From: a virus
IMG/VR virus record: IMGVR_UViG_3300025010_000029
Location: 1-64,000 of that record
Direction: 5' to 3' (one strand)
Length of the DNA: 64,000 nt
Both the position numbers and the translations under genes were made by a program. Of the stretch, positions 26,466 through 42,901 are shown one piece after another (within the stretch, counting starts at the first letter, position 1; every line of letters begins with the position of its first letter). Below the pieces are notes generated by a model. The model made no database searches, was not told the DNA's origin, and worked only from the letters and a program-made list of their open reading frames with translations.

Positions 26466-26517
26466 GTATAAATATTAAGTGCATATACAAGGAATTTATA
26501 TACGACATTTTAATACG

Positions 26518-27580: not shown

Positions 27581-27643
27581 CTTTATATTCTCTATAATAC
27601 CCTTTAATTTAACAGAACCAAAGGGTATTAACAAAATATAAAA
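27581..27643 (-). repeat. Nested intergenic hairpin NH-1
   Basis: Inner stem AATACCCTTT/AAAGGGTATT; weaker outer stem TTTATATT/AATATAAA with internal loop TGTT/ATAGAG. Between the 27644 and 27509 genes. Confidence 0.6.
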
Positions 27644-27826
27644 TTATATTATTTTTCTAAAAAATTTGCCATACCAATAATATTTATTCGGATTGTCAAT
27701 AAAATCTATTTTTATTTGTGGTGATACTTCCCATCCATGTTTTTTCATTTTCTCAATATGTTCATTTCTTTCTTCTTCTGAATCATAAATGTATTGAATA
27801 ATAGTAACCTCAGAAAATTTTTGCAT
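27644..27826 (-). CDS. Hypothetical 60-aa protein
   Basis: Short protein (VTIIQYIYDSEEERNEHIEK...) with an alternating hydrophobic N-terminus and an aromatic tail (YYWYGKFFRK). Its start is 6 nt from the stop of the GHKL/HEXXH gene, so cotranslated. No family recognised. Confidence 0.5.
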   Translation of the reverse strand: MQKFSEVTIIQYIYDSEEERNEHIEKMKKHGWEVSPQIKIDFIDNPNKYYWYGKFFRKII

Positions 27827-27832
27827 TTTTAT

Positions 27833-29212
27833 TTACCTCCTTCTTCTTTGCGTTCCCCTAGCAAACGCCCTACATGCTCTTGAAAATTCATTCTCAAATA
27901 CCACTGTACAATCATCAGCCCTACTTACTTGGTGTACTACTTCATGTATTAATGTATCAAACAATTGATCCCAATCTTCAAGAATTTCTTTTTCAATATA
28001 TATTGTTTGTTCTTTGTGTACGCACAAGCCACTACATTTATTACCATGATCATCATGTAAATTTTCTTTGTAGCGAATTGTATACATTTCAATTTCCATT
28101 GGTGATAAATAATACTTTGTTATAAGTTTTTTAACTTCTTTAATATTGTCTTTTTCTTCTTCTTCTAATTCCCTAACTTTAACATCTTCCCCTACAACAT
28201 CACCATGATGTTGTAGGGTTTTGATTGAATCAAATATACCAAGCTTCTCAAACAATGGAATAATACCACTTACAGGTTTGTCAAGTAAATTATAGTGTCT
28301 ATAAAGCACTTGCACATCAGCAGGAGAATTGCTGGCATAACATACTTTACTTCCCCATAATTCTTTTGCTACTGCTTGCCACAATTTGATATTTTTAGTG
28401 TTAAAGTAGTAAGAATCATATGTTTCCATACAACTCTCATTAATATTTAATAATACTGATTTTATTATTTCTTTGTCAATTGTTTCAGATAAAATGTACT
28501 CCCATACATGGTTGTTAATTGTCCATATACTTACAGCGTTTCTGTCTCTATTTGATAATCTTTTACCAACCAGATTATAACCATATAAGCACTTTAATTT
28601 TAAATCAATTTCAACACCATTGATATACAATTTGTTTGCATCTTTGAGAATCGAATTCTTGGTAAACAAATGTTTATCATTATTGCTGGCACTGATAAAA
28701 CCAAAACAAGCATTAGCTTGATTGAATTCTTCCTCAGAACATTCCAATGAAAATCTACAACCTGCTATTCTATTATTACGATAGATATATAATACTAATT
28801 CTTCACTGCTTAAACTCCCAATCTCAAATTTAGCTTCAATGTCATAACCTGGGATTGAAATTTGAGCATACTTGCCACATTGGGAAGCAACTTTAAGTGA
28901 TAATTTCATACCTTCGCCATTCTCACCTGGGCTATTGTTATCTTGACGTTGCTGTGAATTGCCAATGAGTAACATTTCCAATCCAAAACCTTTGCCATAA
29001 TCTTCCCATATTGCAATACCTGTTTGTTTGTCATAATAATGATTGCCATTTTGTCCCAATGTTTGTAAAGCATAAACATAATTTTGTGCAAATTCTTTGC
29101 AAGCATGAAGAATCGTCCAATTTGACAAATAATTGTTTGAAATAATTGTTTCCTTTCTTAAAAATAATTCCATTTGTTCTTGATTGTTGTTGATATTTAA
29201 AGCTGGTGACAT
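27833..29212 (-). CDS. GHKL-type ATPase domain fused to an HEXXH metallopeptidase-like domain
   Basis: 459 residues. The N-terminal ~150 residues carry Bergerat-fold motifs: N-box HACKEFAQNYVYA (Asn44), G1 EDYGKGFG (71-77) and G2 PGENGEGMKL (95-104), as in HSP90/MutL/MORC ATPases. The C-terminus has LIHEVVHQ (HEXXH 423-427) with a downstream Glu (about 440) as possible third ligand, a gluzincin-like zinc site; the two residue sets are intact. The protein ends in RRRR. The fusion suggests an ATP-gated protease or a sensor coupled to proteolysis. Both domain calls are by motif; substrate unknown. Confidence 0.65.
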   Translation of the reverse strand: MSPALNINNNQEQMELFLRKETIISNNYLSNWTILHACKEFAQNYVYALQTLGQNGNHYYDKQTGIAIWEDYGKGFGLEMLLIGNSQQRQDNNSPGENGEGMKLSLKVASQCGKYAQISIPGYDIEAKFEIGSLSSEELVLYIYRNNRIAGCRFSLECSEEEFNQANACFGFISASNNDKHLFTKNSILKDANKLYINGVEIDLKLKCLYGYNLVGKRLSNRDRNAVSIWTINNHVWEYILSETIDKEIIKSVLLNINESCMETYDSYYFNTKNIKLWQAVAKELWGSKVCYASNSPADVQVLYRHYNLLDKPVSGIIPLFEKLGIFDSIKTLQHHGDVVGEDVKVRELEEEEKDNIKEVKKLITKYYLSPMEIEMYTIRYKENLHDDHGNKCSGLCVHKEQTIYIEKEILEDWDQLFDTLIHEVVHQVSRADDCTVVFENEFSRACRAFARGTQRRRR

Positions 29213-29245
29213 AAATGTGAACCTCCTTGTTATATTTATTTTGTT

Positions 29246-29310
29246 AAAGTTATCTTTATAATATGCATTGTTTTTAATGAATATAACAATGCATACAGTA
29301 AAAACAACTT
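29246..29310 (-). repeat. Nested intergenic hairpin NH-2
   Basis: Inner stem TATGCATTGTT/AACAATGCATA; outer AAAGTTGTTTTTA pairs with TAAAGATAACTTT (with wobble). Overlaps the stop of the upstream gene and precedes the GHKL/HEXXH gene SD. Confidence 0.7.
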
Positions 29311-29756
29311 TATTCTAATGATTTTTGTATTTTCTCTTTCATTTCCAAAAGTTTTTCTATCTCTTTTTTATTTTGTTCAATATATTTATCTATCTTTTTT
29401 ATTTCCATTAATTTACTTTGCATTTCCATTTCAACAAAATATTCTTCAAGTGTCATGTTTTTATATTTTTCGCAATCTTTCATTGTATATACTATAGTAA
29501 CAATTTTTCCTTTTCTATCCATCTTACATCGCTTATCTTCTATTAAATCTAATTCTAATTTAAATATTTCCCTATAATACCCATACTTAATTGCCCAAAC
29601 ACTATATACTAATTCCTTAACCCCCAATTTTCTAAATATTTTAACTGCTATTTGTCTTGCAGTATCATGGAATTCTCCAACATTGATTTTTTGCCCTTCG
29701 AATTGTTTCATTTCTTTATTCAATGCATTTATTATTGTTTTAATTGTAGCACTCAT
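29310..29756 (-). CDS. Hypothetical 148-aa protein with C-terminal coiled coil
   Basis: Globular N-terminal region (FHDTARQIAVKIFRKLGVKE) followed by a ~45-residue coiled coil (KIDKYIEQNKKEIEKLLEM). No enzymatic motif. The last ~45 bp are partly duplicated at about 30790-30845. Confidence 0.5.
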   Translation of the reverse strand: MSATIKTIINALNKEMKQFEGQKINVGEFHDTARQIAVKIFRKLGVKELVYSVWAIKYGYYREIFKLELDLIEDKRCKMDRKGKIVTIVYTMKDCEKYKNMTLEEYFVEMEMQSKLMEIKKIDKYIEQNKKEIEKLLEMKEKIQKSLE

Positions 29757-29789
29757 TTTAAATAAAACCTCCTTGTTATATTTATCATA

Positions 29790-29840
29790 TTTCTTCTACA
29801 CTACCCATTATTATATTAAATAATGAGTAGAAACAAGAAA
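29790..29840 (-). repeat. Nested intergenic hairpin NH-3
   Basis: Inner stem CTACTCATTATT/AATAATGGGTAG (one wobble) inside outer TTTCTTG/TAGAAGAAA-type pairing. Between the DHH gene and the coiled-coil gene. Confidence 0.55.
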
Positions 29841-29844
29841 TCAT

Positions 29845-30702
29845 TTATATATTTTTAATTTTACCAATTATATCATGAAGATTTTTTTCAGTCATTATTT
29901 TACCTCTTGGAGAACCAGCAATGCCAGCATGACCTCCTGCTTCATTCCCCCAAAGTGACTGAACAATATCTTTACAATTAATTGTATCATCACTGCAACT
30001 TATTGTAATGTTGTTAAATGTTTTATTAAAACTGATAATAACTTTAGCAATAGTTTTTAATGTTGGAGAATAATAACTTGCATTGCAAAATACTTTATCT
30101 GTTATAAAAATACGATAATTTTCTGTTTCTTCAATTAGTAAACTCTCAGTAACACTCTGAATATTTTCTGCCCATTGTTTACCTTTTTTAATCCAAAATG
30201 AATTATCTCCATTAATTCCAAGTATTTCGTCTAATACTTGAGCATGTTGGAATATAGTATCTGTCACATCGGCAATTTCTGTTATGCGTGGTGCTCTATT
30301 TTCTGCTGTATAACTCCAATAGGCATTAAACAAATCTTGGATATGTTGAGGAAATTTATGGATATGATGAGGGCCATTTAAATCAATATATTCAGCGGCT
30401 TTCCAAAATTCGTCAATGTAATATTTATTACCAGTTAATGCCAATACACCACCGATAGTATCTAAATCTATATGAGAAACAATAATATTACTACCAATAG
30501 GCAAAGAAAAATCTCTTAAATCTACATTACAAGGTGAAGGACAATTTTTATATTTGTCTACGTGATGTGCTAATGTTATTATACTGCCTTCCAATACATT
30601 ATTACCATACTCTGCTTCAACAGTAGCATGAGGAACAAACGGTATATTTTGTGCTAACTCCCTAGTCGGTACTAGATAGATATTTACTGTTCTTTTTGTC
30701 AT
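29845..30702 (-). CDS. DHH/DHHA1-type phosphoesterase
   Basis: 285 residues. HIDLDTIGGVLAL corresponds to the D-x-D-x-x-G metal motif of DHH phosphoesterases, with a second acidic site near NVDLRDF and LAHHVDKY. The C-terminus has GNEAGGHAGIAGSPRG, the GGHxxAxG motif of the DHHA1 substrate-binding domain. The family includes RecJ, NrnA and c-di-AMP phosphodiesterases. Here it could turn over oligoribonucleotides or second-messenger nucleotides; the motif order is unusual enough that the subfamily is unclear. Confidence 0.6.
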   Translation of the reverse strand: MTKRTVNIYLVPTRELAQNIPFVPHATVEAEYGNNVLEGSIITLAHHVDKYKNCPSPCNVDLRDFSLPIGSNIIVSHIDLDTIGGVLALTGNKYYIDEFWKAAEYIDLNGPHHIHKFPQHIQDLFNAYWSYTAENRAPRITEIADVTDTIFQHAQVLDEILGINGDNSFWIKKGKQWAENIQSVTESLLIEETENYRIFITDKVFCNASYYSPTLKTIAKVIISFNKTFNNITISCSDDTINCKDIVQSLWGNEAGGHAGIAGSPRGKIMTEKNLHDIIGKIKNI

Positions 30703-30742
30703 GATAAAACCTCCATTTATTTTTAATTTAAGGCACTGTTTT

Positions 30743-30804
30743 AATTGCCTTTATAATATACACTGCTATTATTATATATGCAGTGTATACAGTAAAAACA
30801 ACTT
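30743..30804 (-). repeat. Nested intergenic hairpin NH-4
   Basis: Inner stem TATACACTGC/GCAGTGTATA (10 bp); outer AGTTGTTTTTA/TAAAGGCAATT pairs throughout with G-T wobbles. Precedes the DHH gene. Its upstream edge carries a copy of the 29296-29345 sequence. Confidence 0.7.
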
Positions 30805-30851
30805 TTATTTCTTCTAATGATTTTTGTAATTTCTCTTTCATTTCTCACATA

Positions 30852-30998
30852 TTATTTTAATTGTTTAATACAGCTTTTCATTTCAGTCCCACACTTAGGA
30901 CAATAACGTATTTCCTCACTGTTCCGATAATCATAGTCAGACGATCCCTCTTCTCCACATTTAGGGCATTTAGTAATCCACATTTCCTTCATTTCCAT
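30852..30998 (-). CDS. Zinc-ribbon micro-protein (48 aa)
   Basis: ATG 30998 behind AAAGGAGAGTGTTATT. Two CPKCG pairs (KCPKCGEEGS and YCPKCGTEMK) form a textbook ribbon. Probably an adaptor or regulator. Confidence 0.65.
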   Translation of the reverse strand: MEMKEMWITKCPKCGEEGSSDYDYRNSEEIRYCPKCGTEMKSCIKQLK

Positions 30999-31043
30999 AA
31001 TAACACTCTCCTTTATTTAATCAGCATTTAATACATTATACTC

Positions 31044-31265
31044 CTAACAAAATATATTATACTTAGCAAAAACAACATACCTTCCATTGTTCTGTTTAAA
31101 ACATCTAAATCTAATTATTGCTAATTCATGATAAATTCTTTTGTCAACATAAAAGCCATACTTTTTTGCTTCAGTAACCAATTCCATTAAATTATTACTA
31201 TGAATTCCTAACTCCAGCCCCTTTTTACCATGAATTGACATGTATATTTGATCTTGTCCCGACAT
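31044..31265 (-). CDS. Hypothetical 73-aa protein
   Basis: Small alpha/beta protein (QIYMSIHGKKGLELGIHSNN, then LMELVTEAKKYGFYVDKR). No family recognised. SD AAAGGAG. Confidence 0.5.
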   Translation of the reverse strand: MSGQDQIYMSIHGKKGLELGIHSNNLMELVTEAKKYGFYVDKRIYHELAIIRFRCFKQNNGRYVVFAKYNIFC

Positions 31266-31302
31266 AATTATATCACAACTCCTTTTAATTTATAATGTAT
31301 TT

Positions 31303-31363
31303 AAAAGCCTTTATCCCATACATTAACCTTAATTCTTAGCGTTAATGTACAGATAAAAACTTC
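31303..31363 (-). repeat. Nested intergenic hairpin NH-5
   Basis: Outer AAGTTTTTATC/GATAAAGGCTT (11 pairs, two wobbles), inner TACATTAAC/GTTAATGTA. Between amidoligase A and the 31265 gene. Confidence 0.7.
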
Positions 31364-31369
31364 TAATAC

Positions 31370-32932
31370 TTAGCTGATTAATTTTCTTAATTTCATATAT
31401 TGCAACAATTCGCTGTATTTATACATTTTTGCCCAATTTACAATATCGTTAAATGTCGTACTTTGAATATCTTGTAGTTTAACATCTCTAACAAAATTTA
31501 ACAAACACTGGCAGAATTGCAATGTAGCAACAAATGTTTCATACTTCAATGTACCTCTAAAAATTCTTAATTCAATTGTTTCTACATTTCTAATATTTAC
31601 GGTACAATAGCGGTCATGTTTATCTTCGGCATATTTTAATATTGTGTTAATGTCAGTATGGCAATATCTTTTGCACCATGTAGACAATTGGTCTTCTGTT
31701 CTACGTGAGAATAACACAAATTGATCCCAAAATACTTCTGTTACATATAACAATTTTGCAATATTATACTCTTGTTCTGTTCTAGTTTTACCGAATGCCT
31801 TTCTGTTAATGTGAACATGTAAACCACACGTTCCAGAAGTATGACTTCTATAACCTAATTTTATAGCTTTTTTCATTAACTCCTGCCATTTGAATTCTTT
31901 TAGATGTTTTTCCAATGTGGCAGGGTGACTAACAATTTCAAAACCATTGCAAGCTCTGCTATCTTTATCACAAATTGACCCATCGTATTTGGTGTAAAAT
32001 TTACTTTCATGTTTATTACCATTAACAATACTTAATAATCTTTTAGCGTTTTCATCACTGAAGCCACCTTCTCCAATTTCCAATTCTACACCAAAAAGGT
32101 CAGCTTGACTCTTTTTCATGTAAAATATTGGGTCTGGTCTATACTTATAATGATGAATAGCACTTGCCTCAAAAAAGCAGTTCATACAGTAATGTTTATT
32201 ATTAATAATATAAATATTAGATTTTATTTCCACCCAATTACCACATTCAGGACATAAATCATATTTATTTCTGCAATTATTACAAATTCTTCTACCATTA
32301 TTGTCAATTCCATTACTTTCTTTAATTAAATGATAACCACCACAACACCTACAATGAAAAAATTCTAATCTGAAACATTCTCTGCAATAATATTTGCCTT
32401 GATGTTCTGTCGCGTCACAACTTTCCGTATTTACTACAACACCACAACAACTACATGGTTTAAAATATCTATCATAGCATTTATCACAAATTGGTTTGTT
32501 ATTTTTGCCATATGTTTTGGTAACTTCAGAACGTAAGTGATAATTGTAACAATTAGAACACATTAAAAATTTCTCATTAAAACATTTTTCACAATAATCA
32601 ATATTATCCTTCCTATACATATAGTCTTCATGAATTTTTTCGCCACAACATTTACATGGTTTATAGTATCTATCATGACATTTACTACATATCATTCTGC
32701 CATTGGAATCTGTTATTAACTCTGATTTTAAAAGGTGTTTTCCACATTCACTACAATATGAATATTTTTCATTGAAGCATTTATAACATAATTTTTCTTC
32801 AGTTAAAACGTACATACTTCTAACATTTTTTTCAATTCCGCAGTCTGTACATACTTCAGTTATAACTGGGCTCCTTAGTGGTTGTAGTCTAAAACTGTAA
32901 TTCATGGTATAATTCATGTTAGATATTGTCAT
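31370..32932 (-). CDS. Zinc-finger amidoligase A
   Basis: 520 residues. Residues ~28-262 are a tandem array of CxxC zinc ribbons/LIM-like units (CTDCG, CSECG, CKCCGE, CSNCY, CSCCG, CRCCGG, CPECG). Residues ~280-500 match the putative amidoligase fold (glutamine-synthetase-like COOH-NH2 ligases): FGVELEIG at 280-287, FEIVSHPATL about 341-350, CGLHVHI 369-375 and RIFRGTLKYETF. These enzymes join a carboxylate to an amine using ATP. A paralog lies at 35115-36575, and a GATase II and a GGCT are nearby. The target may be a protein bound by the zinc array; inferred. Confidence 0.75.
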   Translation of the reverse strand: MTISNMNYTMNYSFRLQPLRSPVITEVCTDCGIEKNVRSMYVLTEEKLCYKCFNEKYSYCSECGKHLLKSELITDSNGRMICSKCHDRYYKPCKCCGEKIHEDYMYRKDNIDYCEKCFNEKFLMCSNCYNYHLRSEVTKTYGKNNKPICDKCYDRYFKPCSCCGVVVNTESCDATEHQGKYYCRECFRLEFFHCRCCGGYHLIKESNGIDNNGRRICNNCRNKYDLCPECGNWVEIKSNIYIINNKHYCMNCFFEASAIHHYKYRPDPIFYMKKSQADLFGVELEIGEGGFSDENAKRLLSIVNGNKHESKFYTKYDGSICDKDSRACNGFEIVSHPATLEKHLKEFKWQELMKKAIKLGYRSHTSGTCGLHVHINRKAFGKTRTEQEYNIAKLLYVTEVFWDQFVLFSRRTEDQLSTWCKRYCHTDINTILKYAEDKHDRYCTVNIRNVETIELRIFRGTLKYETFVATLQFCQCLLNFVRDVKLQDIQSTTFNDIVNWAKMYKYSELLQYMKLRKLIS

Positions 32933-32981
32933 AATAAAAAATCCCCCTCATTTTATTATATTTTTGTTATGTTAGAATCAT

Positions 32982-33048
32982 GATGTCTTTATTCTATACA
33001 CTATTATAATTAATATTTTATACTTGCTAGTGTATAGATAAAAACATC
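32982..33048 (-). repeat. Nested intergenic hairpin NH-6
   Basis: Outer GATGTTTTTAT/ATAAAGACATC (11 pairs, one wobble), inner CTATACACTA/TAGTGTATAG. It ends one base before the stop of the AUU-start gene. Confidence 0.75.
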
Positions 33049-33315: not shown

Positions 33316-33347
33316 AATTATACCTCCTTTATTTTATATATTATTAA

Positions 33348-33402
33348 AAATGCTTTTAATGCTATACTGTTATAATTAACCAGTATAGACATAAAAACAC
33401 TC
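33348..33402 (-). repeat. Nested intergenic hairpin NH-7
   Basis: Inner CTATACTG/CAGTATAG; outer AGTGTTTTTATG pairs with CATTAAAAGCATT (one bulge, wobbles). Between GATase II and the AUU-start gene. Confidence 0.6.
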
Positions 33403-33403
33403 T

Positions 33404-34246
33404 TTATTTTAATGCAGTAGTACCATAACTAGCACCATAAGCATCATAATATCTTGCTTCTTCTTCCTCACATGCCAAACATTCTTGGTAGTAATGGCAC
33501 TCACTGCAACTTTTTACAGAAAGAGACAATTGACAAGTTTTTTTGTACTCTAATTCAACAATTTCTAGTACATTTTCAATGGTTGTTTGTGTTGTTGTAG
33601 TTGCTGTTTTAGTCTGTTTGGTATATTTACTATATTTACTACTATAATAACTGGTTTTATAATAATGACTTTCATAGGATGAATTGCTGTAATAACAACC
33701 ATCCATTTTATTGTAAATAAAGTTTCCAATTATTTTAATTTCAGAAGGTGACATAATGACAAATTTACTTTTGGTTGCTTCAACAATTAAATCTCCAACA
33801 CCTGGATGAAATATTACATCCTTCATATTTACTAAATATTTAGATACGAATACCATCGTGTCAGAGGTATTTTTGTCATCACCGCAAAAGCTAATAATTC
33901 CATTATGGACAATAGCCAAGTCTGTTTTAATTAATTTAGCTTTAAGATGTTTAGTATTAGTTGTTACTGGGAATGGATGACAATTGCCTTTGTTTACTTT
34001 CCCATGCGAAGCCATACGGAAATGTATAGATAATTCCAATTCTTGCATATTTTCTTTTTGTGATAACTCACGCAAAGCGTTCATAAGAGCATCAAACTTC
34101 ATAAAACCTTTTTGAATTGTTACAAAAGATTTTGAAGGATCTTGGTACATAAAACCAGCACCATCCCAATTGTTATCCCAACAATTTTGCAATGTTTCAT
34201 ACTCTGGTAAAAATTCTCCTGCTGGTTTATAAACGATTATACACAT
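33404..34246 (-). CDS. Class II glutamine amidotransferase-like protein
   Basis: 280 residues from ATG 34246, which follows CAGGAGGTTTTATT and makes Cys2 the N-terminal nucleophile (MCIIVYKP), as in Ntn-type GATases. Supporting motifs: WDGAGFMYQD, HFRMASHGKVN...CHPFP, AIVHNGII and TSDTMVF. The family releases ammonia from glutamine for a partner ligase. Tyr/Ser-rich linker (about 185-215) and C-terminal Cys cluster are additions. Between two amidoligases, it most simply supplies ammonia or remodels glutamine substrates; that coupling is an inference. Confidence 0.75.
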   Translation of the reverse strand: MCIIVYKPAGEFLPEYETLQNCWDNNWDGAGFMYQDPSKSFVTIQKGFMKFDALMNALRELSQKENMQELELSIHFRMASHGKVNKGNCHPFPVTTNTKHLKAKLIKTDLAIVHNGIISFCGDDKNTSDTMVFVSKYLVNMKDVIFHPGVGDLIVEATKSKFVIMSPSEIKIIGNFIYNKMDGCYYSNSSYESHYYKTSYYSSKYSKYTKQTKTATTTTQTTIENVLEIVELEYKKTCQLSLSVKSCSECHYYQECLACEEEEARYYDAYGASYGTTALK

Positions 34247-34290
34247 AATAAAACCTCCTGTTTTTGTTTTAATTTTAAACATTTTAATTA

Positions 34291-34362
34291 AAATGCTTAA
34301 TACAAGGCTTAAATTATTGATTGTTATTGTTTATGGATAATTTAAGCCTTCAATAAACATTC
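34291..34362 (-). repeat. Nested intergenic hairpin NH-8
   Basis: Inner stem AAGGCTTAAATTAT/ATAATTTAAGCCTT (14 bp perfect); outer AATGTTTA/TAAGCATT. Upstream of the GATase II gene. Confidence 0.75.
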
Positions 34363-34372
34363 TTTTATTTTT

Positions 34373-34528: not shown

Positions 34529-34556
34529 TATTTAAATACCTCCTTTATTATTTTAA

Positions 34557-34618
34557 AATAAATACTTAATACAAGGCTTAAACATATTAGTAATTTAAGC
34601 CTTCAATAAACATTTATT
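34557..34618 (-). repeat. Nested intergenic hairpin NH-9
   Basis: Inner AAGGCTTAAA/TTTAAGCCTT, outer AAATGTTTA/TAAGTATTT; compared with NH-8 the outer stem differs but still pairs through wobbles. Confidence 0.7.
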
Positions 34619-34874
34619 TTATACAGTCTATACATAACCATGCATCTTTATAAAAAAGCAAATCTACTGGCTTGCGACATGCTGTACAACATGGTTTAAG
34701 AGTATATAGTTTACCTTTACAAATATAATTTCCTAATTGATAAACATTAGAATTATAAATACATTCAAACTTTAATATTTCTTCATTTGGTGGAGTTTTC
34801 CGTTTATGTCCATAAGGTATTTGTCCTTTCCATTTTTTTTCATCTTCAGACCATAAATAATCTATTTTTGCCAT
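34614..34874 (-). CDS. Zinc-binding hypothetical protein (86 aa)
   Basis: C-terminal CCTACRKPVD and WLCIDCIK suggest a four-cysteine site. N-terminus is charged (YLWSEDEKKWKGQIPYGHKR). Belongs to the same run of zinc-ribbon genes around the amidoligases. Confidence 0.55.
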   Translation of the reverse strand: MAKIDYLWSEDEKKWKGQIPYGHKRKTPPNEEILKFECIYNSNVYQLGNYICKGKLYTLKPCCTACRKPVDLLFYKDAWLCIDCIK

Positions 34875-34892
34875 TGTATACTATACCCCTCC

Positions 34893-35000: not shown

Positions 35001-35036
35001 AATTATACCTCCTATTATTTTTATTTTGTAAAACAA

Positions 35037-35100
35037 AAAGCCTTTATAATAAGCATTTACCTAATTGCATTTTGGCAGTAAATGCTTACATAAAAACTTC
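35037..35100 (-). repeat. Nested intergenic hairpin NH-10
   Basis: Outer AAGTTTTTAT/ATAAAGGCTT, inner TAAGCATTTAC/TAAATGCTTA. Downstream of amidoligase B. Confidence 0.7.
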
Positions 35101-35114
35101 TTAATATTTTGTTT

Positions 35115-36575
35115 TTATGCTAATTTTCTTTTTTGCAGGTATGCAAGTAATTCTTGGTAATTAAAATCATTAGCATAATTTATAATTGATTTCCATGTTA
35201 AAGCTTGAATATGTTGAATATCTGTATTCCTTATTATATCTAATAAGGTTTGACAAAATTGCAATGTTGCGACAAATGTTTCATATTTCAATGTACCTCT
35301 GAAAATACGTATTTCTACTGTGTTAAAAGGTTTTAAGTTTATGGCATGGAATCTTGAAGTGTCAGAATCTTTTGCTACTTCAAGCAATTCTTTTGCATCA
35401 TCTTGTGTATTATTAAGAATATTAAATCCGTATCTGTCACAATATTCCAGTTGTTTTTCTGTTCTACGTGAAAATTTAACAAACTTATTCCAATGCATTT
35501 CTACAACAAGCAATAATTTTAATATATTTAGGTCTTGTTTATCCTCAGAAATTCCAAAAGCTTCTTTATTAATATGAATATGCAGACCACATGTTTCACA
35601 ATCATGTGATTTATAATTCAAATCAATAGCTTCTTCCATTAATTCCTGCCACTTAAATTCTTTTAGGTGTTTTTCCAATGTTGCTGGATGACTAACAATT
35701 TCAAAACCATCATCTATTGAAGCATCATTCTTAATATAAATATGATCTTCATCGTTATCATTCATTATGTCAAGCAATTTACTAGCATTTTCTTTGTCAT
35801 CTCCTCCATTATCAATTTCCAGTTCAACACCAAAAAGGTCTAATTCGTTTTTGGTGTTTCTGTGAAATATAGGTTCTGGTTTATATGAATAATTATGTAT
35901 TTTACCCTTGTGTTTTGGATAGCATTTGTCACAATAATCTTCCCAGTCAATTTGATTTCTTCCATTGTTTCCATTGCACCAACAACCACAATCACTACAT
36001 CTTACTATGCTCTCATGGCATGAGTTACAAATGACTGTATTATAACTGTCACTATTACCTTGATCATCATTGTAAACATTGCCACACTCTTCACACTTAA
36101 ATGTATTATTGCTAAAACAATGTGAACAATAACAATTTTCATTATGGTCTTTTTTCTTATCATCAACGTGTGTTATATCTTCACAATGATAACAAGTAAA
36201 ATAATTATCACCATAACAATCATTACAAACAAAAGTATGTCTGTCAATTTGTGTCATATCATCTTTTAAATGGTATTGATCGCATTCTTTGCACTGTTTA
36301 TAGTTATCATTCAAACATTCTTCACAAACATAAACATACTCGTTACTTCCTCCAACATCTGTCATATCATTGGTTATAAAATATTCACCACATTCTGTAC
36401 ATTCTGTATAATTTTCTAAGCACTCTTTACATACTTTGTCACCAGAGTTTACAACTGTTAAAAAATTGTCAAATTTCCTGTTTCCACATTCTTCACATAC
36501 ACCAATAGCAAATAATTTAAGCTCTGTATGTCTTTGAATTATGTTTTTGCTGGGAATTAATTTCTTGTATTTCAT
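35115..36575 (-). CDS. Zinc-finger amidoligase B
   Basis: 486 residues from ATG 36575 (GGAGGTTGTGTCTA upstream; an earlier ATG at 36584 is too close to the SD). Same layout as amidoligase A: a long N-terminal run of CxxC ribbons (CEECGNR, CKECLEN, CTECGEY, CKECDQY, CEECGNV, CSDCGCW), then LFGVELEIDNGG, GFEIVSHPATLEKHLKEF, CGLHIHI and RIFRGTLKYETF. The stretch FEIVSHPATLEKHLKEFKWQ is identical to A, so the two arose by duplication and kept the catalytic half more strictly than the finger half. Confidence 0.75.
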   Translation of the reverse strand: MKYKKLIPSKNIIQRHTELKLFAIGVCEECGNRKFDNFLTVVNSGDKVCKECLENYTECTECGEYFITNDMTDVGGSNEYVYVCEECLNDNYKQCKECDQYHLKDDMTQIDRHTFVCNDCYGDNYFTCYHCEDITHVDDKKKDHNENCYCSHCFSNNTFKCEECGNVYNDDQGNSDSYNTVICNSCHESIVRCSDCGCWCNGNNGRNQIDWEDYCDKCYPKHKGKIHNYSYKPEPIFHRNTKNELDLFGVELEIDNGGDDKENASKLLDIMNDNDEDHIYIKNDASIDDGFEIVSHPATLEKHLKEFKWQELMEEAIDLNYKSHDCETCGLHIHINKEAFGISEDKQDLNILKLLLVVEMHWNKFVKFSRRTEKQLEYCDRYGFNILNNTQDDAKELLEVAKDSDTSRFHAINLKPFNTVEIRIFRGTLKYETFVATLQFCQTLLDIIRNTDIQHIQALTWKSIINYANDFNYQELLAYLQKRKLA

Positions 36576-36626
36576 TAGACACAACCTCCTGTTATATTGA
36601 TATTTTAAATTTACAGACTTTTTAAA

Positions 36627-36688
36627 AAGCCTTTATACTGCACACTAATATGTTAATATGTTGGAATTAGTGTACAGATTAAAAACTT
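36627..36688 (-). repeat. Nested intergenic hairpin NH-11
   Basis: Outer AAGTTTTTA/TAAAGGCTT, inner CTGTACACTAAT/ATTAGTGTGCAG (one wobble). Upstream of amidoligase B. Confidence 0.7.
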
Positions 36689-36691
36689 CTT

Positions 36692-36832: not shown

Positions 36833-36845
36833 TTTATACCTCCTT

Positions 36846-36872
36846 AGAATTAGTGTACAGATTAAAAACTTT
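36846..36872 (-). repeat. Half copy of NH-11
   Basis: AAGTTTTTAATCTGTACACT plus TAATTC repeats the 5' arms of NH-11, but the 3' arms are replaced directly by TAAGGAGG, the SD of the 46-aa gene. It cannot form the nested hairpin alone. Confidence 0.55.
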
Positions 36873-37247: not shown

Positions 37248-37286
37248 TAATAAAACCTCTTTTCGTATTTTATTTTGTTAAAGCAA

Positions 37287-37347
37287 AAAGTTTTTAGAAT
37301 GGATATTTACTGTGATAACAATAAGTAAATATCCATGTTAAAAACTT
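37287..37347 (-). repeat. Nested intergenic hairpin NH-12
   Basis: Outer AAGTTTTTA/TAAAAACTT (all Watson-Crick), inner TGGATATTTACT/AGTAAATATCCA. Confidence 0.75.
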
Positions 37348-37350
37348 CTT

Positions 37351-37773: not shown

Positions 37774-37812
37774 ATTAAAACCTCTTTTCATATTATTATT
37801 TTGTTAAAGCAA

Positions 37813-37869
37813 AAAGTTTTTAGAATAGACACTTCGAATTAAATAATAAAGTGTCTATGTTAAAAACTT
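37813..37869 (-). repeat. Nested intergenic hairpin NH-13
   Basis: Outer AAGTTTTTA/TAAAAACTT, inner ATAGACACTT/AAGTGTCTAT. Confidence 0.75.
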
Positions 37870-37894
37870 CTCTTTACCTTATGTGTTTATTATA

Positions 37895-38293: not shown

Positions 38294-38319
38294 TAATAAA
38301 ACCTCCTGTTTTTAATTTT

Positions 38320-38386
38320 AAAGCCTTTAGAATAGATACTTGTATAATATACAATATTATACAAGTATCCAGTGTTAAAAGCTTTT
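38320..38386 (-). repeat. Nested intergenic hairpin NH-14
   Basis: Outer AAGCTTTTA/TAAAGGCTT, inner GATACTTGTATAATAT/ATATTATACAAGTATC (16 bp). Compared with NH-5 or NH-10 a T-G outer pair is C-G here. Confidence 0.75.
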
Positions 38387-38580
38387 CATAATGTTGTTTT
38401 TAATCCTAATTGATTTAATAAATTCTTTATACTTTTTATATGCTGGTTTGGTTCTGCTTCTTGATCATCCACTAATATCCCTACTTTATCTCTCATAGAT
38501 TTTAACTTCATAATTCTTAAATTTAATTCTTCTTCTATTACATATAAATCATACTTAGATAAAATAATTTTATATTCCAT
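38386..38580 (-). CDS. Hypothetical 64-aa protein
   Basis: Helical, charged (DLYVIEEELNLRIMKLKSMR). SD AGGAGGTTTTATTC, the standard pattern of this region. No family recognised. Confidence 0.5.
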   Translation of the reverse strand: MEYKIILSKYDLYVIEEELNLRIMKLKSMRDKVGILVDDQEAEPNQHIKSIKNLLNQLGLKTTL

Positions 38581-38610
38581 GAATAAAACCTCCTGTTTAA
38601 TTTTTATTTT

Positions 38611-38678
38611 AAAGCTTTTAGAATAGACATATTAACATTATTATTAATAATTATTAATATGTCCAGTGTTAAAAGCTT
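38611..38678 (-). repeat. Nested intergenic hairpin NH-15
   Basis: Outer AAGCTTTTA/TAAAAGCTT, inner GACATATTAA/TTAATATGTC. Confidence 0.75.
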
Positions 38679-38680
38679 CT

Positions 38681-38941
38681 TTACACTCTTCTTCCTTTAC
38701 TATATCCATCAAAATATTCATTTCCAGAATTAATGTTATTCTCTGTAATAAAATCATAACCCATATTTGACATCCATTTGATCATAGTCATTTTGGGATA
38801 TCCTGTAAATATACCAGTTATAGGTATTTCTTTACTTGAAAATTGATAATAAGGTACATCATCTTTAAACCCCATAAATAACAGTGTCGTGAGTTTTGTT
38901 ACTCTGTTTTTGAAAATCAGACATTTGTTTCTTTTATACAT
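38681..38941 (-). CDS. Hypothetical 86-aa protein
   Basis: Basic N-terminus (YKRNKCLIFKNRVTKLTTL), beta-rich middle. No family recognised. Confidence 0.5.
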   Translation of the reverse strand: MYKRNKCLIFKNRVTKLTTLLFMGFKDDVPYYQFSSKEIPITGIFTGYPKMTMIKWMSNMGYDFITENNINSGNEYFDGYSKGRRV

Positions 38942-38962
38942 ATGAAAACCTCCTTTTAATTT

Positions 38963-39020
38963 GAAAACCTTACATTAACAAGTATGCTAAATGTTAAAAA
39001 TAAATGTTTCTAATGTTTTC
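38963..39020 (-). repeat. Weak nested hairpin NH-16
   Basis: GAAAAC/GTTTTC outer and CATTA/TAATG inner arms with a long AT-rich loop; least convincing of the set. Confidence 0.35.
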
Positions 39021-39049
39021 ATTTATTCAATTGCTCATTGTTAATGAAT

Positions 39050-39107
39050 AAAGCCTTTAGAATAAGCATTAACAATAATTTTGTTAATGCTCAGTGTTAA
39101 AAGCCTT
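39050..39107 (-). repeat. Nested intergenic hairpin NH-17
   Basis: Outer AAGGCTTTTA/TAAAGGCTTT (wobbles), inner AGCATTAACAA/TTGTTAATGCT. Confidence 0.7.
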
Positions 39108-39522
39108 ATTTAATTATGGTTGTTAAAGCTTCATAATATAAATCAGCTAACATTTCCTTTATATCTTGACAATCTTTTCTTATATACCCTTTTCTATTTG
39201 AAAATTTTCCTTTAATTTGTAGATCTATTCCATGCTGAAGGTCTGGTGTAATAATAACCTGAAAATCAATCCATCCATCATAAAACCCATTATCATCCAT
39301 AACATGATAAAAACTATTAATTGTTATTTTATTCCTGTTTGATTTTTCCATGTTAATACTATTACCACTATCAATACCACTGCCAGAAGGTAAAAAAGAT
39401 ATTAGCGTTCTTAAATTATCTCTATGCTCTTCGGTTACTTCTTTGTCCATGTCTACCATTTTTTCACAATTTTTTACTGCTTGAATTCTCATAGCAATTT
39501 TTACATATAATTTTTCTGTCAT
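39106..39522 (-). CDS. Hypothetical 138-aa protein
   Basis: Acidic, alpha/beta (NLRTLISFLPSGSGIDSG, then WIDFQVIITPDLQHGIDL). No motif recognised. Flanked on both sides by nested hairpins. Confidence 0.5.
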   Translation of the reverse strand: MTEKLYVKIAMRIQAVKNCEKMVDMDKEVTEEHRDNLRTLISFLPSGSGIDSGNSINMEKSNRNKITINSFYHVMDDNGFYDGWIDFQVIITPDLQHGIDLQIKGKFSNRKGYIRKDCQDIKEMLADLYYEALTTIIK

Positions 39523-39558
39523 TATTAAAACCTCCTGTTATAGTTATATTTTTTAACA

Positions 39559-39622
39559 TAATACTTGATACAAGGCTTAAACATATAAAATAATGCAGTG
39601 TTTAAGCCTTCAACAAATATTA
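39559..39622 (-). repeat. Nested intergenic hairpin NH-18
   Basis: Inner AAGGCTTAAAC/GTTTAAGCCTT, outer AATATTTG/CAAGTATT. The last outer pair is G-C where NH-8 has A-T. Confidence 0.7.
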
Positions 39623-39624
39623 TA

Positions 39625-39939
39625 TTAACTTGTATAAGTATATACTTTTACACCATCACCACAATCAGACATTTTTACCATAATACCAGAAAAATAAGTC
39701 TGTGAAGAATAACCAGAAAATTCTTGCATCCACTCAGGAGCATTTTTTTCGACACGCATAATTTCACTTAAAAAATAGGTATTTCCTTCATGTTCAAAAC
39801 AAGCTTCAAATTCCTGTTCGTCTTCTGGTTTATCTTTTTCCCACTCAGGTATTTTATAATCTATTTCTATATATTCATCATCTCCATAAATTTTTATAGT
39901 GCTATTTTCTTGGTCAATTGTTTTCCATAATTTACTCAT
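39625..39939 (-). CDS. Hypothetical acidic 104-aa protein
   Basis: Strongly acidic (EWEKDKPEDEQEFEACFEHE), ending CGDGVKVYTYTS. Could mimic nucleic acid, but no known inhibitor family is recognised. Confidence 0.5.
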   Translation of the reverse strand: MSKLWKTIDQENSTIKIYGDDEYIEIDYKIPEWEKDKPEDEQEFEACFEHEGNTYFLSEIMRVEKNAPEWMQEFSGYSSQTYFSGIMVKMSDCGDGVKVYTYTS

Positions 39940-39972
39940 AAATAAAAACCTCCTGTTATATTAAAATTTTTA

Positions 39973-40030
39973 ATTTAATTCCTTTGTAAAATACCCTCTC
40001 ACTAATAGGATACTTTACAAGGGAATTAAA
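39973..40030 (-). repeat. Intergenic hairpin NH-19 (single long stem)
   Basis: TTTAATTCCCTTGTAAAGTA pairs with TATTTTACAAAGGAATTAAA around a short loop, with a few bulges. Confidence 0.6.
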
Positions 40031-40043
40031 CCCTTGTTTATTG

Positions 40044-40388
40044 TTATAATCCCTTTTCTAAAATGTCACCTATGCAACCTAAGCGAAGCTTACTCTTGTA
40101 GAATAATATTGTAGTTGTATAAGTGTCCCCTGCATTAATATATTGTACTTCTTCTGGATCTGTTATACCTTCAACACCAAAAAATGAACCCCTATTACAA
40201 TGAGTGTTTAACACTTTATCAATATCTTTTAACCAGTCTGCAATAGCATGAGAAGGATGATGTCCCTGTATATGATAATCTTTCCATGATTTTTTAATGC
40301 ATATTTCCCTTAATTCTTTTACTCCTTCCTTTGTTGTTATAGACAGATCATTTGCACACTGTTTAAAATTCTTTTGATTTATTACCAT
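40044..40388 (-). CDS. Hypothetical 114-aa protein
   Basis: Contains CIKKSWKDYHIQGHHPSHAI and ends KLRLGCIGDILEKGL. Histidine-rich middle may bind metal. No family recognised. Confidence 0.5.
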   Translation of the reverse strand: MVINQKNFKQCANDLSITTKEGVKELREICIKKSWKDYHIQGHHPSHAIADWLKDIDKVLNTHCNRGSFFGVEGITDPEEVQYINAGDTYTTTILFYKSKLRLGCIGDILEKGL

Positions 40389-40414
40389 GTTAAAACCTCC
40401 TGTTAAAATTTAAT

Positions 40415-40476
40415 TTAAATACCTTGTAAAACTCCTTTTTATAATAGTGTTAAAGAAGCTTTACAAGGGATTTAAA
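40415..40476 (-). repeat. Intergenic hairpin NH-20 (single long stem)
   Basis: AAATCCCTTGTAAA/TTTTACAAGGTATTT with a mismatched upper part. Its 5' arm overlaps the last codons of the 40472 gene. Confidence 0.55.
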
Positions 40477-40846
40477 TCCCTTGTTTTATAACAGGTGACA
40501 AGTCTCCTTCTTCCTGCTGTTCAGGAGATAAGGGACATTTTATAAATAAGGATGATTCTAAAGTATGAATAAATAAACCCTTGCATAAGAATACACCTTT
40601 ATTTCTAGCACTTGGTACATTCTGGAATTCAATTAAAGTATAACCTGCACGTAACAATTTAAGAGAATAAGACAATGGTGCAACAATGGCAATGGTTTTT
40701 TCTGAGGTAATAGATTGAATTTGATTGATGATGTCATCGTTAAAGGTTACATTATGTTGCTTTATATTGGCAATACCTAAACTTTCCAATGTTTTTACTT
40801 GACCATTTGTTAAAGCATGACGAGATAACCAGATTAATATTTTCAT
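40472..40846 (-). CDS. Conserved hypothetical with SRHxLTxxQ N-terminus
   Basis: 124 residues: MKILIWLSRHALTNGQVKTL and, about 60 residues on, TIAIVAPLSYSLKLLRAGYT. This SRHxxTxxQ...VAPL pattern is seen in many Firmicutes phage and plasmid proteins of unknown function, often near the CARF-fold group; a CARF-like Rossmann fold is possible. Function unknown. Confidence 0.55.
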   Translation of the reverse strand: MKILIWLSRHALTNGQVKTLESLGIANIKQHNVTFNDDIINQIQSITSEKTIAIVAPLSYSLKLLRAGYTLIEFQNVPSARNKGVFLCKGLFIHTLESSLFIKCPLSPEQQEEGDLSPVIKQGI

Positions 40847-40889
40847 TATTAAAAACCTCCTGTTTTATTATTGGTTAATTTTAAAGCAA

Positions 40890-40941
40890 AAATGCTTTAA
40901 TCAGGACATATTTATTTTATAATGTCCTGTTTAAAACACTC
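40890..40941 (-). repeat. Nested intergenic hairpin NH-21
   Basis: Outer GTGTTTTAA/TTAAAGCAT, inner AGGACAT/ATGTCCT. Confidence 0.65.
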
Positions 40942-40943
40942 TT

Positions 40944-41177
40944 TTAGTAAATCATAATATATTCTTTTGGATATTTTAAACAATAGGAAATAATGTTTAG
41001 TTCTAACCATTTCCATCCCTGGGAAGGTATGTAAACTAATTCTTTATATCCTATATAATTATTTATCCAGCATTCTATAGAAATTATGCAAGGATTAGTA
41101 CGTTTTTTAAATTCCTCCCATTCTTGGTCTGATATTTTAGGGAAATTCAACTTTAATAATATAGGTTGTTGTGTCAT
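40944..41177 (-). CDS. Hypothetical 77-aa protein
   Basis: Contains ISDQEWEEFKKRTNPCIISI and an aromatic, hydrophobic C-terminus. No family recognised. Confidence 0.5.
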   Translation of the reverse strand: MTQQPILLKLNFPKISDQEWEEFKKRTNPCIISIECWINNYIGYKELVYIPSQGWKWLELNIISYCLKYPKEYIMIY

Positions 41178-41203
41178 AATTGTAAAACCTCCTATGTTAT
41201 ATT

Positions 41204-41283
41204 TAAAACCTTAACAATAGGTACAATTAATTTAAACTCTTTAAAACAAGTCTATTAATTGTACCTATGTTTAAAATTTTAAA
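41204..41283 (-). repeat. Nested intergenic hairpin NH-22 (twin of NH-25)
   Basis: Outer AAAATTTTAA/TTAAGGTTTT, inner TAGGTACAATTAAT/ATTAATTGTACCTA. Almost identical to 42824-42901. Confidence 0.75.
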
Positions 41284-41288
41284 TAATG

Positions 41289-41696
41289 CTATCCTTCAAT
41301 TTGCTCAATGTCAAAGTTATCAAAAACCTTATGAAGCTTTTCACCTTGTCGCAAACAAGCTTTATATATTTTCAGATTTTCAGAATTTTCTGCATCATAA
41401 TCAAAATCATTGCAAAAACTGGTATATGTTGGGTAATATTCTTCAGTATAATAGAAATCTGATTTAATGCAAGCCATAACGGAATAGTACAGGTTTTCAG
41501 GATATATTATACCATTTTCTGTATTATTAATAGAATCATAAAACTTAAAGCCACATTTGGCTTTTGTTTCTTGGTTGGTACATGTTACACGATAGACATT
41601 CCTTAAACTAGCTTCTTGCCATGTAGGATGAAATTCTTCTGCAATAAAGGTAATAGTAACCTTGATGTTATTGTGCATTTTTTGAAAATTTTTCAT
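41289..41696 (-). CDS. Hypothetical 135-aa protein
   Basis: Beta-rich start (NNIKVTITFIAEEFHPTWQE), acidic C-terminal half (YPTYTSFCNDFDYDAENSEN). No family recognised. Confidence 0.5.
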   Translation of the reverse strand: MKNFQKMHNNIKVTITFIAEEFHPTWQEASLRNVYRVTCTNQETKAKCGFKFYDSINNTENGIIYPENLYYSVMACIKSDFYYTEEYYPTYTSFCNDFDYDAENSENLKIYKACLRQGEKLHKVFDNFDIEQIEG

Positions 41697-41737
41697 TTTA
41701 AAACCTCCTGTTTATTATTGTTTAATTTAAATCAAAA

Positions 41738-41801
41738 AATGTTTTAATCATGGCATTTTATTGTCTGTTATAAGATTATAAATGCCATGTTTAAAACATT
41801 C
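41738..41801 (-). repeat. Nested intergenic hairpin NH-23
   Basis: Outer AATGTTTTAA/TTAAAACATT (perfect), inner CATGGCAT/ATGCCATG. Confidence 0.75.
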
Positions 41802-42089
41802 TTAGTTATTTTTATTCTGATTTCTAAAATAATCTTTTTCATACCATGATGTATATTGTTCTTTTGTTACATACTGTACATAATACCTATCTTTATTATA
41901 ATAAGGTTTTTTAGTACAGATATTAATATTTTTTTGATCTGTTCTGTTTTTTGCGTTGTCTTCAACTATACAAGCTTCAGAGTAAGAGCTACATTCAAAA
42001 ACAAGCTTGTTAATTTTTCCCTTTGCTTTACCCCAACCAGACATAAATTTGTCAGTCATTGTTACATAATACTTTTTATTTTCTGGCAT
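41802..42089 (-). CDS. Hypothetical 95-aa protein
   Basis: Start ATG 42089 behind AACAGGAGGTTTTTAACA (a longer frame to 42146 crosses the hairpin region). Basic, Tyr/Lys-rich (PYYNKDRYYVQYVTKEQYTS). No family recognised. Confidence 0.5.
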   Translation of the reverse strand: MPENKKYYVTMTDKFMSGWGKAKGKINKLVFECSSYSEACIVEDNAKNRTDQKNINICTKKPYYNKDRYYVQYVTKEQYTSWYEKDYFRNQNKNN

Positions 42090-42132
42090 TGTTAAAAACC
42101 TCCTGTTATTATTGTTTAATTTTAAATCAAAA

Positions 42133-42187
42133 AATGCTTGATACAAGGGTTAAACAAGTAAATAATTTAACCCTTCAACAAACATTC
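42133..42187 (-). repeat. Nested intergenic hairpin NH-24
   Basis: Outer AATGTTTG/CAAGCATT, inner AAGGGTTAAA/TTTAACCCTT. Confidence 0.7.
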
Positions 42188-42189
42188 TT

Positions 42190-42504
42190 TTACCTATGCA
42201 TAGTGTTATGCAAGTTTATTAATGGGTCTCTTTGTGCAATTTCTTGGAATTCACCCCTTCTGTTTAATCTTGCCATGCATTCTAAATATTTGTAACCTGC
42301 CACATAGCCTTTATTAAAACCTTCATTTATTACAGAATATGCCATATTAAATTCTTCTGATTCTATAAAGGAAAAATGCATTCTTACTAATAATGGTTGG
42401 ATATTGTCAAATGTTACATATTTCATACTAGATAATATTGCCTTTGTTGTTACTTCAACATGTTTCATTGACATATTTTCTGATATTATAGCTTTTCTTG
42501 CCAT
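42190..42504 (-). CDS. Hypothetical 104-aa protein
   Basis: Helical repeat-like pattern (MAYSVINEGFNKGYVAGYKY). No motif recognised. Confidence 0.5.
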   Translation of the reverse strand: MARKAIISENMSMKHVEVTTKAILSSMKYVTFDNIQPLLVRMHFSFIESEEFNMAYSVINEGFNKGYVAGYKYLECMARLNRRGEFQEIAQRDPLINLHNTMHR

Positions 42505-42524
42505 ATAAAAACCTCCTGTTTAAA

Positions 42525-42573
42525 TTATTCGCAAAAACTCACTTGTTATTGTTAAGTGAGTTTTTGCGAATAA
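42525..42573 (-). repeat. Long perfect intergenic hairpin
   Basis: TTATTCGCAAAAACTCACTT pairs with AAGTGAGTTTTTGCGAATAA: 20 bp without mismatch and a 9-nt loop; no internal loop, unlike its neighbours. Confidence 0.7.
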
Positions 42574-42795
42574 TTAAATAAGCCATAATTTCCTTAATTC
42601 ATTAAATATTGCTAGTTTTGTATTTTTACCTGTAAGGTCTGCATATAAACCAATAATGCCAGCCAGATCATCATCTCCTTTTTTAATTCTTTCCATAACT
42701 TGGTCTAAATGGTGATAATTAACAGCCCTTTGATTAACTTTATAAAATTTCTCAGGATTATTAAAGGACATAACTTTTTTAGTCGCATTGTTCAT
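42574..42795 (-). CDS. Hypothetical 73-aa protein
   Basis: Helical (VNYHHLDQVMERIKKGDDDL). No family recognised. Confidence 0.5.
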   Translation of the reverse strand: MNNATKKVMSFNNPEKFYKVNQRAVNYHHLDQVMERIKKGDDDLAGIIGLYADLTGKNTKLAIFNELRKLWLI

Positions 42796-42823
42796 AGTGT
42801 TTAAAACCTCCTGTTAATTATTA

Positions 42824-42901
42824 TAAAACCTTAACAATAGGTACAATTAATTTAAACTCTTTAAAACAAGTCTATTAATTATACCCATGTTTAAAATTTT
42901 A
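42824..42901 (-). repeat. Nested intergenic hairpin NH-25 (twin of NH-22)
   Basis: ~75 nt near-identical to NH-22. The few differences in the inner stem (TAGGTACAA to TGGGTATAA on one arm) mostly keep pairing through G-T wobbles. Confidence 0.75.

What the first reader, a model, noticed from the sequence alone, without database searches (positions are those of the whole stretch)
27581..42901. A family of about 25 two-storey intergenic hairpins with covarying arms
Most genes here are preceded by: outer arm (AAGnTTTTA or AATGTTTA type), short internal loop, a gene-specific inner stem of 8-16 bp, then the complementary outer arm, then AGGAGGTTTT-ATG. Arm sequences differ between copies but pairing is kept, often by G-U wobble or compensatory change (for instance T-G in NH-5 becomes C-G in NH-14; A-T in NH-8 becomes G-C in NH-18). 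That is the signature of selection on RNA. Possible roles: RNase III-like processing into monocistronic units, termination with read-through, or a protein-binding regulon tag.
Basis: seen in the sequence. Interest (0 to 1): 0.85.

Follow-up and report, generated by a model that had tools for sequence, protein, structure and literature searches.

The report
Phage operon with 25 RNA-cutting hairpins
Nearly every gene boundary in one 17-kb operon of this large bacterial virus carries a two-part RNA hairpin kept by selection, laid out like the known RNase III cutting sites of Bacillus phage SPO1 but far more numerous, so the virus probably has its long messenger RNA chopped into single-gene messages.

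Summary
On the minus strand, 25 two-storey hairpins lie between 26425 and 42907. They occupy 22 of 24 same-direction gene gaps of 60 nt or more there, against 2 of 37 elsewhere in the 165,697-base record. Local shuffles give 0-1 comparable structures genome-wide. In 14 alignable copies, 18 of 24 pairs show double-sided compensatory change (0 of 500 shuffles). A strand-symmetric count of non-Watson-Crick opposites gives 18 G-U against 4 A-C (p=0.004), pointing to selection on minus-strand RNA. Duplex length is 24.7±2.9 bp, without U tracts. The 5' arm starts at the upstream stop codon (median 0 nt); the 3' arm ends about 35 nt before the next start codon, behind AGGAGG. Best explanation: host RNase III processing of a polycistronic mRNA into single-gene units. 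Annotated 'RNAse III sites' RS-A to RS-F of phage SPO1 (AF031901) are the comparator: RS-A to RS-D have the same two-storey form and four of six overlap the upstream stop codon. Cleavage itself is inferred. Relatives G001 and G008 carry the same architecture with mostly unrelated sequence. A dense variant of a known kind, not a new category.

The parts
26425..26497 (-). two-storey hairpin (outer 9, inner 16 bp); also contains a perfect TTGACA-18-TATAAT promoter match
27580..27644 (-). two-storey hairpin (outer 12, inner 15 bp)
29245..29312 (-). two-storey hairpin, main sub-family
29789..29841 (-). two-storey hairpin (weaker, outer 7, inner 12 bp)
30743..30803 (-). two-storey hairpin, main sub-family; upstream of gene 29845-30702
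31301..31366 (-). two-storey hairpin, main sub-family
32982..33048 (-). two-storey hairpin, main sub-family
33346..33404 (-). two-storey hairpin, main sub-family
34290..34363 (-). two-storey hairpin, AATGTTTA sub-family
34554..34621 (-). two-storey hairpin, AATGTTTA sub-family
35034..35103 (-). two-storey hairpin, main sub-family
36624..36691 (-). two-storey hairpin, main sub-family
36833..36872 (-). half-hairpin: repeat of the 5' half of 36624-36691 without its 3' half
   Evidence: sequence
37285..37350 (-). two-storey hairpin, main sub-family
37811..37872 (-). two-storey hairpin, main sub-family
38320..38385 (-). two-storey hairpin, main sub-family (C-G variant)
38611..38679 (-). two-storey hairpin, main sub-family (C-G variant)
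39047..39110 (-). two-storey hairpin, main sub-family (C-G variant)
39553..39628 (-). two-storey hairpin, AATGTTTA sub-family (G-C closing pair)
39972..40032 (-). two-storey hairpin, TTGTAAAG sub-family
40412..40478 (-). two-storey hairpin, TTGTAAAG sub-family
40888..40943 (-). two-storey hairpin, GTTTTAAACA sub-family
41200..41285 (-). two-storey hairpin, near-duplicate of 42818-42907
41735..41803 (-). two-storey hairpin, GTTTTAAACA sub-family
42129..42190 (-). two-storey hairpin, AATGTTTA sub-family (C-G to G-C inversion in inner stem)
42514..42583 (-). single unbroken stem of about 20-25 bp at a junction, without internal loop
42818..42907 (-). two-storey hairpin, near-duplicate of 41200-41285

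Best explanation
The hairpins are RNA processing sites in one long polycistronic (probably early) transcript read leftwards through about 33 genes. Each hairpin forms between the stop codon of one gene and the Shine-Dalgarno of the next as a 19-32 bp irregular duplex with an internal loop about one helical turn above its base. Host RNase III recognises duplex shape and length more than sequence, and cuts each site. The operon is thereby divided into single-gene mRNAs, each beginning with a short leader and a strong purine-rich AGGAGG start, which in the Bacillus phage SP82 is reported to affect mRNA half-life. Shown: position, structure, selection on minus-strand RNA, lack of terminator features, structural match to annotated RNase III sites. 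Inferred: cutting, the enzyme, and the effect on mRNA stability and expression.
For: 22 of 24 gaps carry the structure in the array against 2 of 37 elsewhere. Double-sided changes in 18 of 24 pairs, 94.9% of cells paired, 0/500 shuffles, slid structures 41-51% paired; the AATGTTTA sub-family also shows A-U to G-C and C-G to G-C changes. G-U exceeds A-C 18 to 4 in a strand-symmetric test. Duplex 24.7±2.9 bp; mapped B. subtilis RNase III duplexes run 10-36 bp (PMC11780869). SPO1 record AF031901 annotates six RNase III sites. RS-C was recovered blind by the same finder with identical ends; RS-A to RS-D are two-storey, and RS-C, D, E and F overlap the upstream stop codon. SPO1 copies also covary. 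G001 and G008 keep the architecture: hairpin to next start 28-35 nt median in all three phages. Gene 29845-30702 and its 47%-identical G008 counterpart both have a hairpin about 40 nt upstream, with no evident sequence similarity.
Against: No transcript ends or cleavage data exist for this uncultured phage, and its host is unknown. No RNase III gene was found in the phage record, so the host enzyme must serve. SPO1 sites share a conserved internal-loop sequence (GCTAG / ATGG), whereas here the loops are 1-5 nt and differ between sub-families. In G001 terminal loops share AUAACA in 12 of 20 copies (null maximum 6), which hints at a sequence-specific factor that RNase III does not need. Two of the six annotated SPO1 sites (RS-E, RS-F) fold only weakly.
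Confidence: 0.66

Rival explanations
1. Uncut structural spacers: the hairpins stay whole, insulate neighbouring genes, block exonucleases, or bring the stop codon close to the next Shine-Dalgarno so that translation can be re-initiated.
For: The 5' arm starts at the stop codon and the Shine-Dalgarno follows the 3' arm, so folding shortens the stop-to-start path to about 35 nt. The sequence is free to vary.
Against: Does not predict a uniform duplex of about 25 bp with a mid-helix internal loop, nor the match with annotated RNase III sites.
Confidence: 0.14
2. Protein-binding tags: a phage or host RNA-binding protein recognises the internal loop or terminal loop and controls the whole regulon.
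For: Sub-families share internal-loop letters; G001 loops share AUAACA well above chance.
Against: In this phage the terminal loops share no motif above chance and internal loops differ between sub-families.
Confidence: 0.1
3. Weak terminators or attenuators with read-through, possibly overridden by an antitermination system.
For: Position after each stop codon is where terminators sit; some 3' arms end in CTTTTT.
Against: Only 2.5 T in the 8 nt after the arm; 12 terminator-like hairpins were found elsewhere on this strand and none in the array (a laxer scan lists two weak ones there, both inside genes); the Ts at arm ends are paired; 25 in series without promoters between them would silence distal genes.
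Confidence: 0.05
4. DNA-level cassettes: the hairpins are recombination or mobile elements that move genes, RNA structure being incidental.
For: Near-identical copies at 41200 and 42818, a half copy at 36833-36872, sub-families scattered in the array, and array genes mostly absent from close relatives.
Against: Compensatory change and the G-U excess on one strand call for selection on RNA; inner stems are not shared between most copies. Recombination at the hairpins may still help spread them.
Confidence: 0.05

Closest known systems
RNase III sites RS-A to RS-F in the SPO1 / SP82 host-takeover (early) region
   Same: Two-storey hairpin with covarying inner stem between genes; 5' arm at the upstream stop codon in four of six; purine-rich Shine-Dalgarno about 30 nt downstream; early-type small unknown genes; Gram-positive phage.
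   Different: Six sites interspersed with annotated promoters and terminators; conserved internal-loop letters GCTAG/ATGG; G+C-richer, shorter duplexes. Here 25 sites in one run without terminators between them, and different letters.
RNase III processing signals of coliphage T7 (R0.3 to R18.5; from general knowledge)
   Same: Irregular hairpins with an internal loop near mid-duplex, in intergenic regions of polycistronic phage mRNA, yielding smaller mRNAs.
   Different: About ten sites spread over a 40-kb genome; different sequence; cleavage shown experimentally there, not here.
PeSL cassettes of T4-type phages (promoter early stem-loop; from general knowledge)
   Same: Intergenic stem-loops linked with gene cassettes and shuffling.
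   Different: PeSLs carry an early promoter and terminator-like loop; here only 26425-26497 overlaps a perfect promoter match and no U tracts follow.
Self-cleaving ribozymes (Pistol, also present in this phage at 14844-14920)
   Same: Another intergenic element that cuts phage mRNA.
   Different: No Rfam ribozyme matches any array hairpin; array stems have no conserved catalytic letters.

Membership tests
Phage intergenic RNase III processing sites (SPO1/SP82, T7 type) | Hairpin duplex of roughly two helical turns, irregular, with an internal loop | tested here: met
   Outer plus inner pairs 24.7±2.9 bp, range 19-32, internal loops 1-5 nt; published B. subtilis range 10-36 bp
Phage intergenic RNase III processing sites (SPO1/SP82, T7 type) | Located between genes of a polycistronic transcript, in transcript sense | tested here: met
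   Minus-strand G-U excess; 22 of 24 gaps; none inside an ORF in the array. That the genes form one transcript is inferred from gene order and lack of terminators
Phage intergenic RNase III processing sites (SPO1/SP82, T7 type) | Structure rather than sequence is conserved | tested here: met
   18 of 24 pairs with double changes; cross-copy inner arms pair 4.5 bp against 12.8
Phage intergenic RNase III processing sites (SPO1/SP82, T7 type) | Cleavage by RNase III at the site | not testable with these tools
   No transcript or biochemical data; no RNase III gene in the phage record, so it would be the host's enzyme
SPO1 RS sites in the narrow sense (sequence family) | Internal-loop letters GCTAG / ATGG and arm GGTT / AGCC | tested here: not met
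   Alignment of SPO1 copies against array copies; R1 model does not hit SPO1
Intrinsic terminators | G+C-rich stem followed at once by a U tract | tested here: not met
   Mean 2.5 T in the 8 nt after the arm; none of the 12 minus-strand terminator-like sites lies in the array
Known Rfam RNA families | Match above the gathering score | tested here: not met
   Only Pistol at 14844-14920 in the window; chance-level matches in the array
PeSL cassettes (T4-type) | A promoter within each cassette | tested here: not met
   Promoter-like matches near the shuffle level (156 against 135±12 on both strands); one perfect match, in 26425-26497. Phage-specific promoter types were not tested

The most novel reading that the evidence does not exclude
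These phages run a dedicated operon-dicing system: nearly every junction of a 17-kb operon has an interchangeable processing hairpin, and a phage- or host-coded factor reading the terminal loop (AUAACA in G001) tunes or times cutting, so that a family of RNA elements acts as a regulon switch distinct from plain RNase III sites.
Probability: 0.15. Interest if true: 0.8.

Novelty: new variant of a known kind. Interest (0 to 1): 0.52.

Why it matters
It would show that RNase III-style division of polycistronic phage mRNA, known from T7 and SPO1/SP82 with six to ten sites, can be carried to near saturation: one structurally standardised site per gene junction, with letters renewed freely in each phage. 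That gives a natural library of 25 substrates in one transcript (plus those in G001 and G008) for working out what Gram-positive RNase III reads in a duplex, and a marker for recognising such operons in uncultured phages. It would also explain how genes can be shuffled in and out of such an operon while staying independently expressed.

Tried and rejected
Sequence-pattern searches of viral contigs for three hairpin sub-families: 9, 12 and 0 hits, none matching the covariance model; chance. Closer relatives by RNA ligase (G004, 89% identical; fragments G005, G007; G009, G010) show no array in the sequence held, so a one-to-one comparison of orthologous hairpins by close alignment was not possible. 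Bacillus phage vB_BcoS-136 (62% RNA ligase) shows none in the 150 kb read. Amidoligase search in genome contigs gave one distant hit and no host clue. Megablast of 28-40 kb against phage records: no match. Phage-coded RNase III: none. First G-U count (55 against 6) was discarded as biased, because the finder allows G-U on the searched strand; the strand-symmetric recount (18 against 4) is used. In G001 the same recount is not significant (15 against 9). The 100% paired figure is partly by construction; the MAFFT-based count is the one relied on.
Full report
What was checked. The window is bases 1-64000 of a 165,697-base virus record. Genes of the region run on the minus strand, so the RNA is the minus strand. 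I wrote a finder for outer stem, internal loop, inner stem and terminal loop and ran it on both strands and on two local dinucleotide-preserving shuffles. Counts below -18 kcal/mol: 29 (minus), 9 (plus), 0 and 1 (shuffles).

Where they lie. With simple gene calls, 22 of 24 same-direction gaps of 60-400 nt in the array hold such a hairpin, against 2 of 14, 0 of 15 and 0 of 8 in other parts of the record. The exceptions are 26961-27056 (none) and 42505-42573 (a single unbroken stem). The 5' arm starts at the upstream stop codon (median 0 nt) and the 3' arm ends a median of 35 nt before a start codon; 23 of 25 are followed by a Shine-Dalgarno and start. Outer stems average 12.0 bp, inner stems 12.8 bp, sum 24.7±2.9 bp.

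Is it selection on RNA? Fourteen copies align by sequence alone with a consensus structure of 24 pairs; 18 pairs have double-sided changes, 94.9% of cells pair, and no shuffle of 500 reaches these values; sliding the partner by 1-3 columns drops pairing to 41-51%. The AATGTTTA sub-family shows an A-U to G-C change in the outer arm and a C-G to G-C inversion in an otherwise nearly constant inner stem. These are paralogous copies and relatedness is only partly controlled; R-scape was not available. As an independent test, palindromes were found with a strand-symmetric rule and non-Watson-Crick opposites counted: 18 G-U against 4 A-C on the minus strand (p=0.004), while the genome from 64 kb on gives 11 against 10. 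DNA-level palindromes would give equal numbers.

What it is not. The 8 nt after the 3' arm hold 2.5 T on average; in one scan 12 terminator-like hairpins exist elsewhere on this strand and none in the array, and a laxer scan adds two weak matches inside genes. Sigma-70-like matches are near the shuffle level (156 against 135±12 on both strands) apart from one perfect match inside 26425-26497. No Rfam family matches the array.

Relatives. G001 (IMGVR_UViG_3300046453_000081), whose UvrD-like helicase is 40% identical and lies next to its array, has its own set of about 20 hairpins at 96208-106994 with mostly different letters; 12 of 20 terminal loops hold AUAACA, null maximum 6. G008 (IMGVR_UViG_3300025012_000035) has about ten. 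Two of them, 46639-46702 and 50124-50188, share an outer arm while their inner stems differ; the first lies 42 nt upstream of a gene 47% identical to window 29845-30702, whose own hairpin is 40 nt upstream. A covariance model of the window copies finds one clear match in G008 (23404-23489, E=1.8e-6; L097 3404-3489) and none in SPO1 or in the array-less relatives. Closer relatives by RNA ligase lack the array, so arrays seem to come and go with the variable region.

The comparator. The same finder run on SPO1 picked out a hairpin at 11808-11855. The GenBank record of the SPO1 early region (AF031901) labels exactly this stretch 'RNAse III site RS-C' and lists RS-A to RS-F (record offset 1685). 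RS-A to RS-D fold as two-storey hairpins; aligned SPO1 copies covary; RS-C, D, E and F overlap the stop codon of the upstream gene. RS-E and RS-F fold less well. The primary literature (Panganiban and Whiteley 1983 on SP82 early mRNA; Hue et al. 1995 on a polypurine 5' stabiliser) was seen only as references; a review states that RBS mutations shorten SP82 mRNA half-life (PMC7509114). Genome-wide mapping in B. subtilis puts RNase III cuts in duplexes of 10-36 bp and notes U-G enrichment in the distal box (PMC11780869).

Mechanism. The most likely reading is that host RNase III cuts each junction of one long transcript, giving single-gene mRNAs whose 5' ends carry a short leader and strong AGGAGG. 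Position, structure, RNA-level selection and likeness to annotated sites are shown; cutting, enzyme and effect on stability are inferred. No RNase III gene was found in the phage record. Rivals (uncut spacers, protein tags, leaky terminators, DNA cassettes) are weighed in their own sections. Recombination may still spread the elements: 41200-41285 and 42818-42907 are near-duplicates whose two differences in the inner stem (A to G, C to T in the 5' arm) both keep pairing as G-U, and 36833-36872 is a half copy.

Verdict. Real, well above chance, kept by selection on RNA, and best filed as a dense variant of phage RNase III processing sites. Membership by function remains untested.

Noticed in passing
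14844-14920 (-): Pistol self-cleaving ribozyme (RF02679, 58.5 bits against a cut-off of 34.5) just after the stop codon of gene 14920-16014, so this phage also has a ribozyme at a gene junction.
   Followed up: partly
26436-26465 (-): Perfect TTGACA-18-TATAAT promoter match inside hairpin 26425-26497: the -35 box in the terminal loop, the -10 box in the 3' arm.
   Followed up: no
36833-36872 (-): Half-hairpin repeating the 5' half of 36624-36691 without its partner, probably left by a duplication or deletion.
   Followed up: no
43424-48245: About 4.8 kb without convincing long ORFs directly upstream of the array, rich in repeats and in TATA-like tracts; possibly a control region or origin. No Rfam match.
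   Followed up: partly
31370-32932 and 35115-36584 (-): Two paralogous (45% identical) Amidoligase_2 proteins with long cysteine-rich (zinc-ribbon-like) N-terminal halves.
   Followed up: partly
G001 (L041/L042), array 96208-106994: Terminal loops of the hairpins share AUAACA(R) in 12 of 20 copies, far above shuffles; function unknown.
   Followed up: partly
29845-30702 (-): Protein without Pfam hit; conserved SHIDLDT and GGHAGIAGS stretches resemble DHH-type phosphoesterases (reading by eye).
   Followed up: no
L169 10544-10592 (-), SPO1: SPO1 has a further two-storey hairpin with the same internal-loop letters as RS-C that is not labelled as an RNase III site; a terminator (TL2.7) is annotated over part of it.
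   Followed up: no
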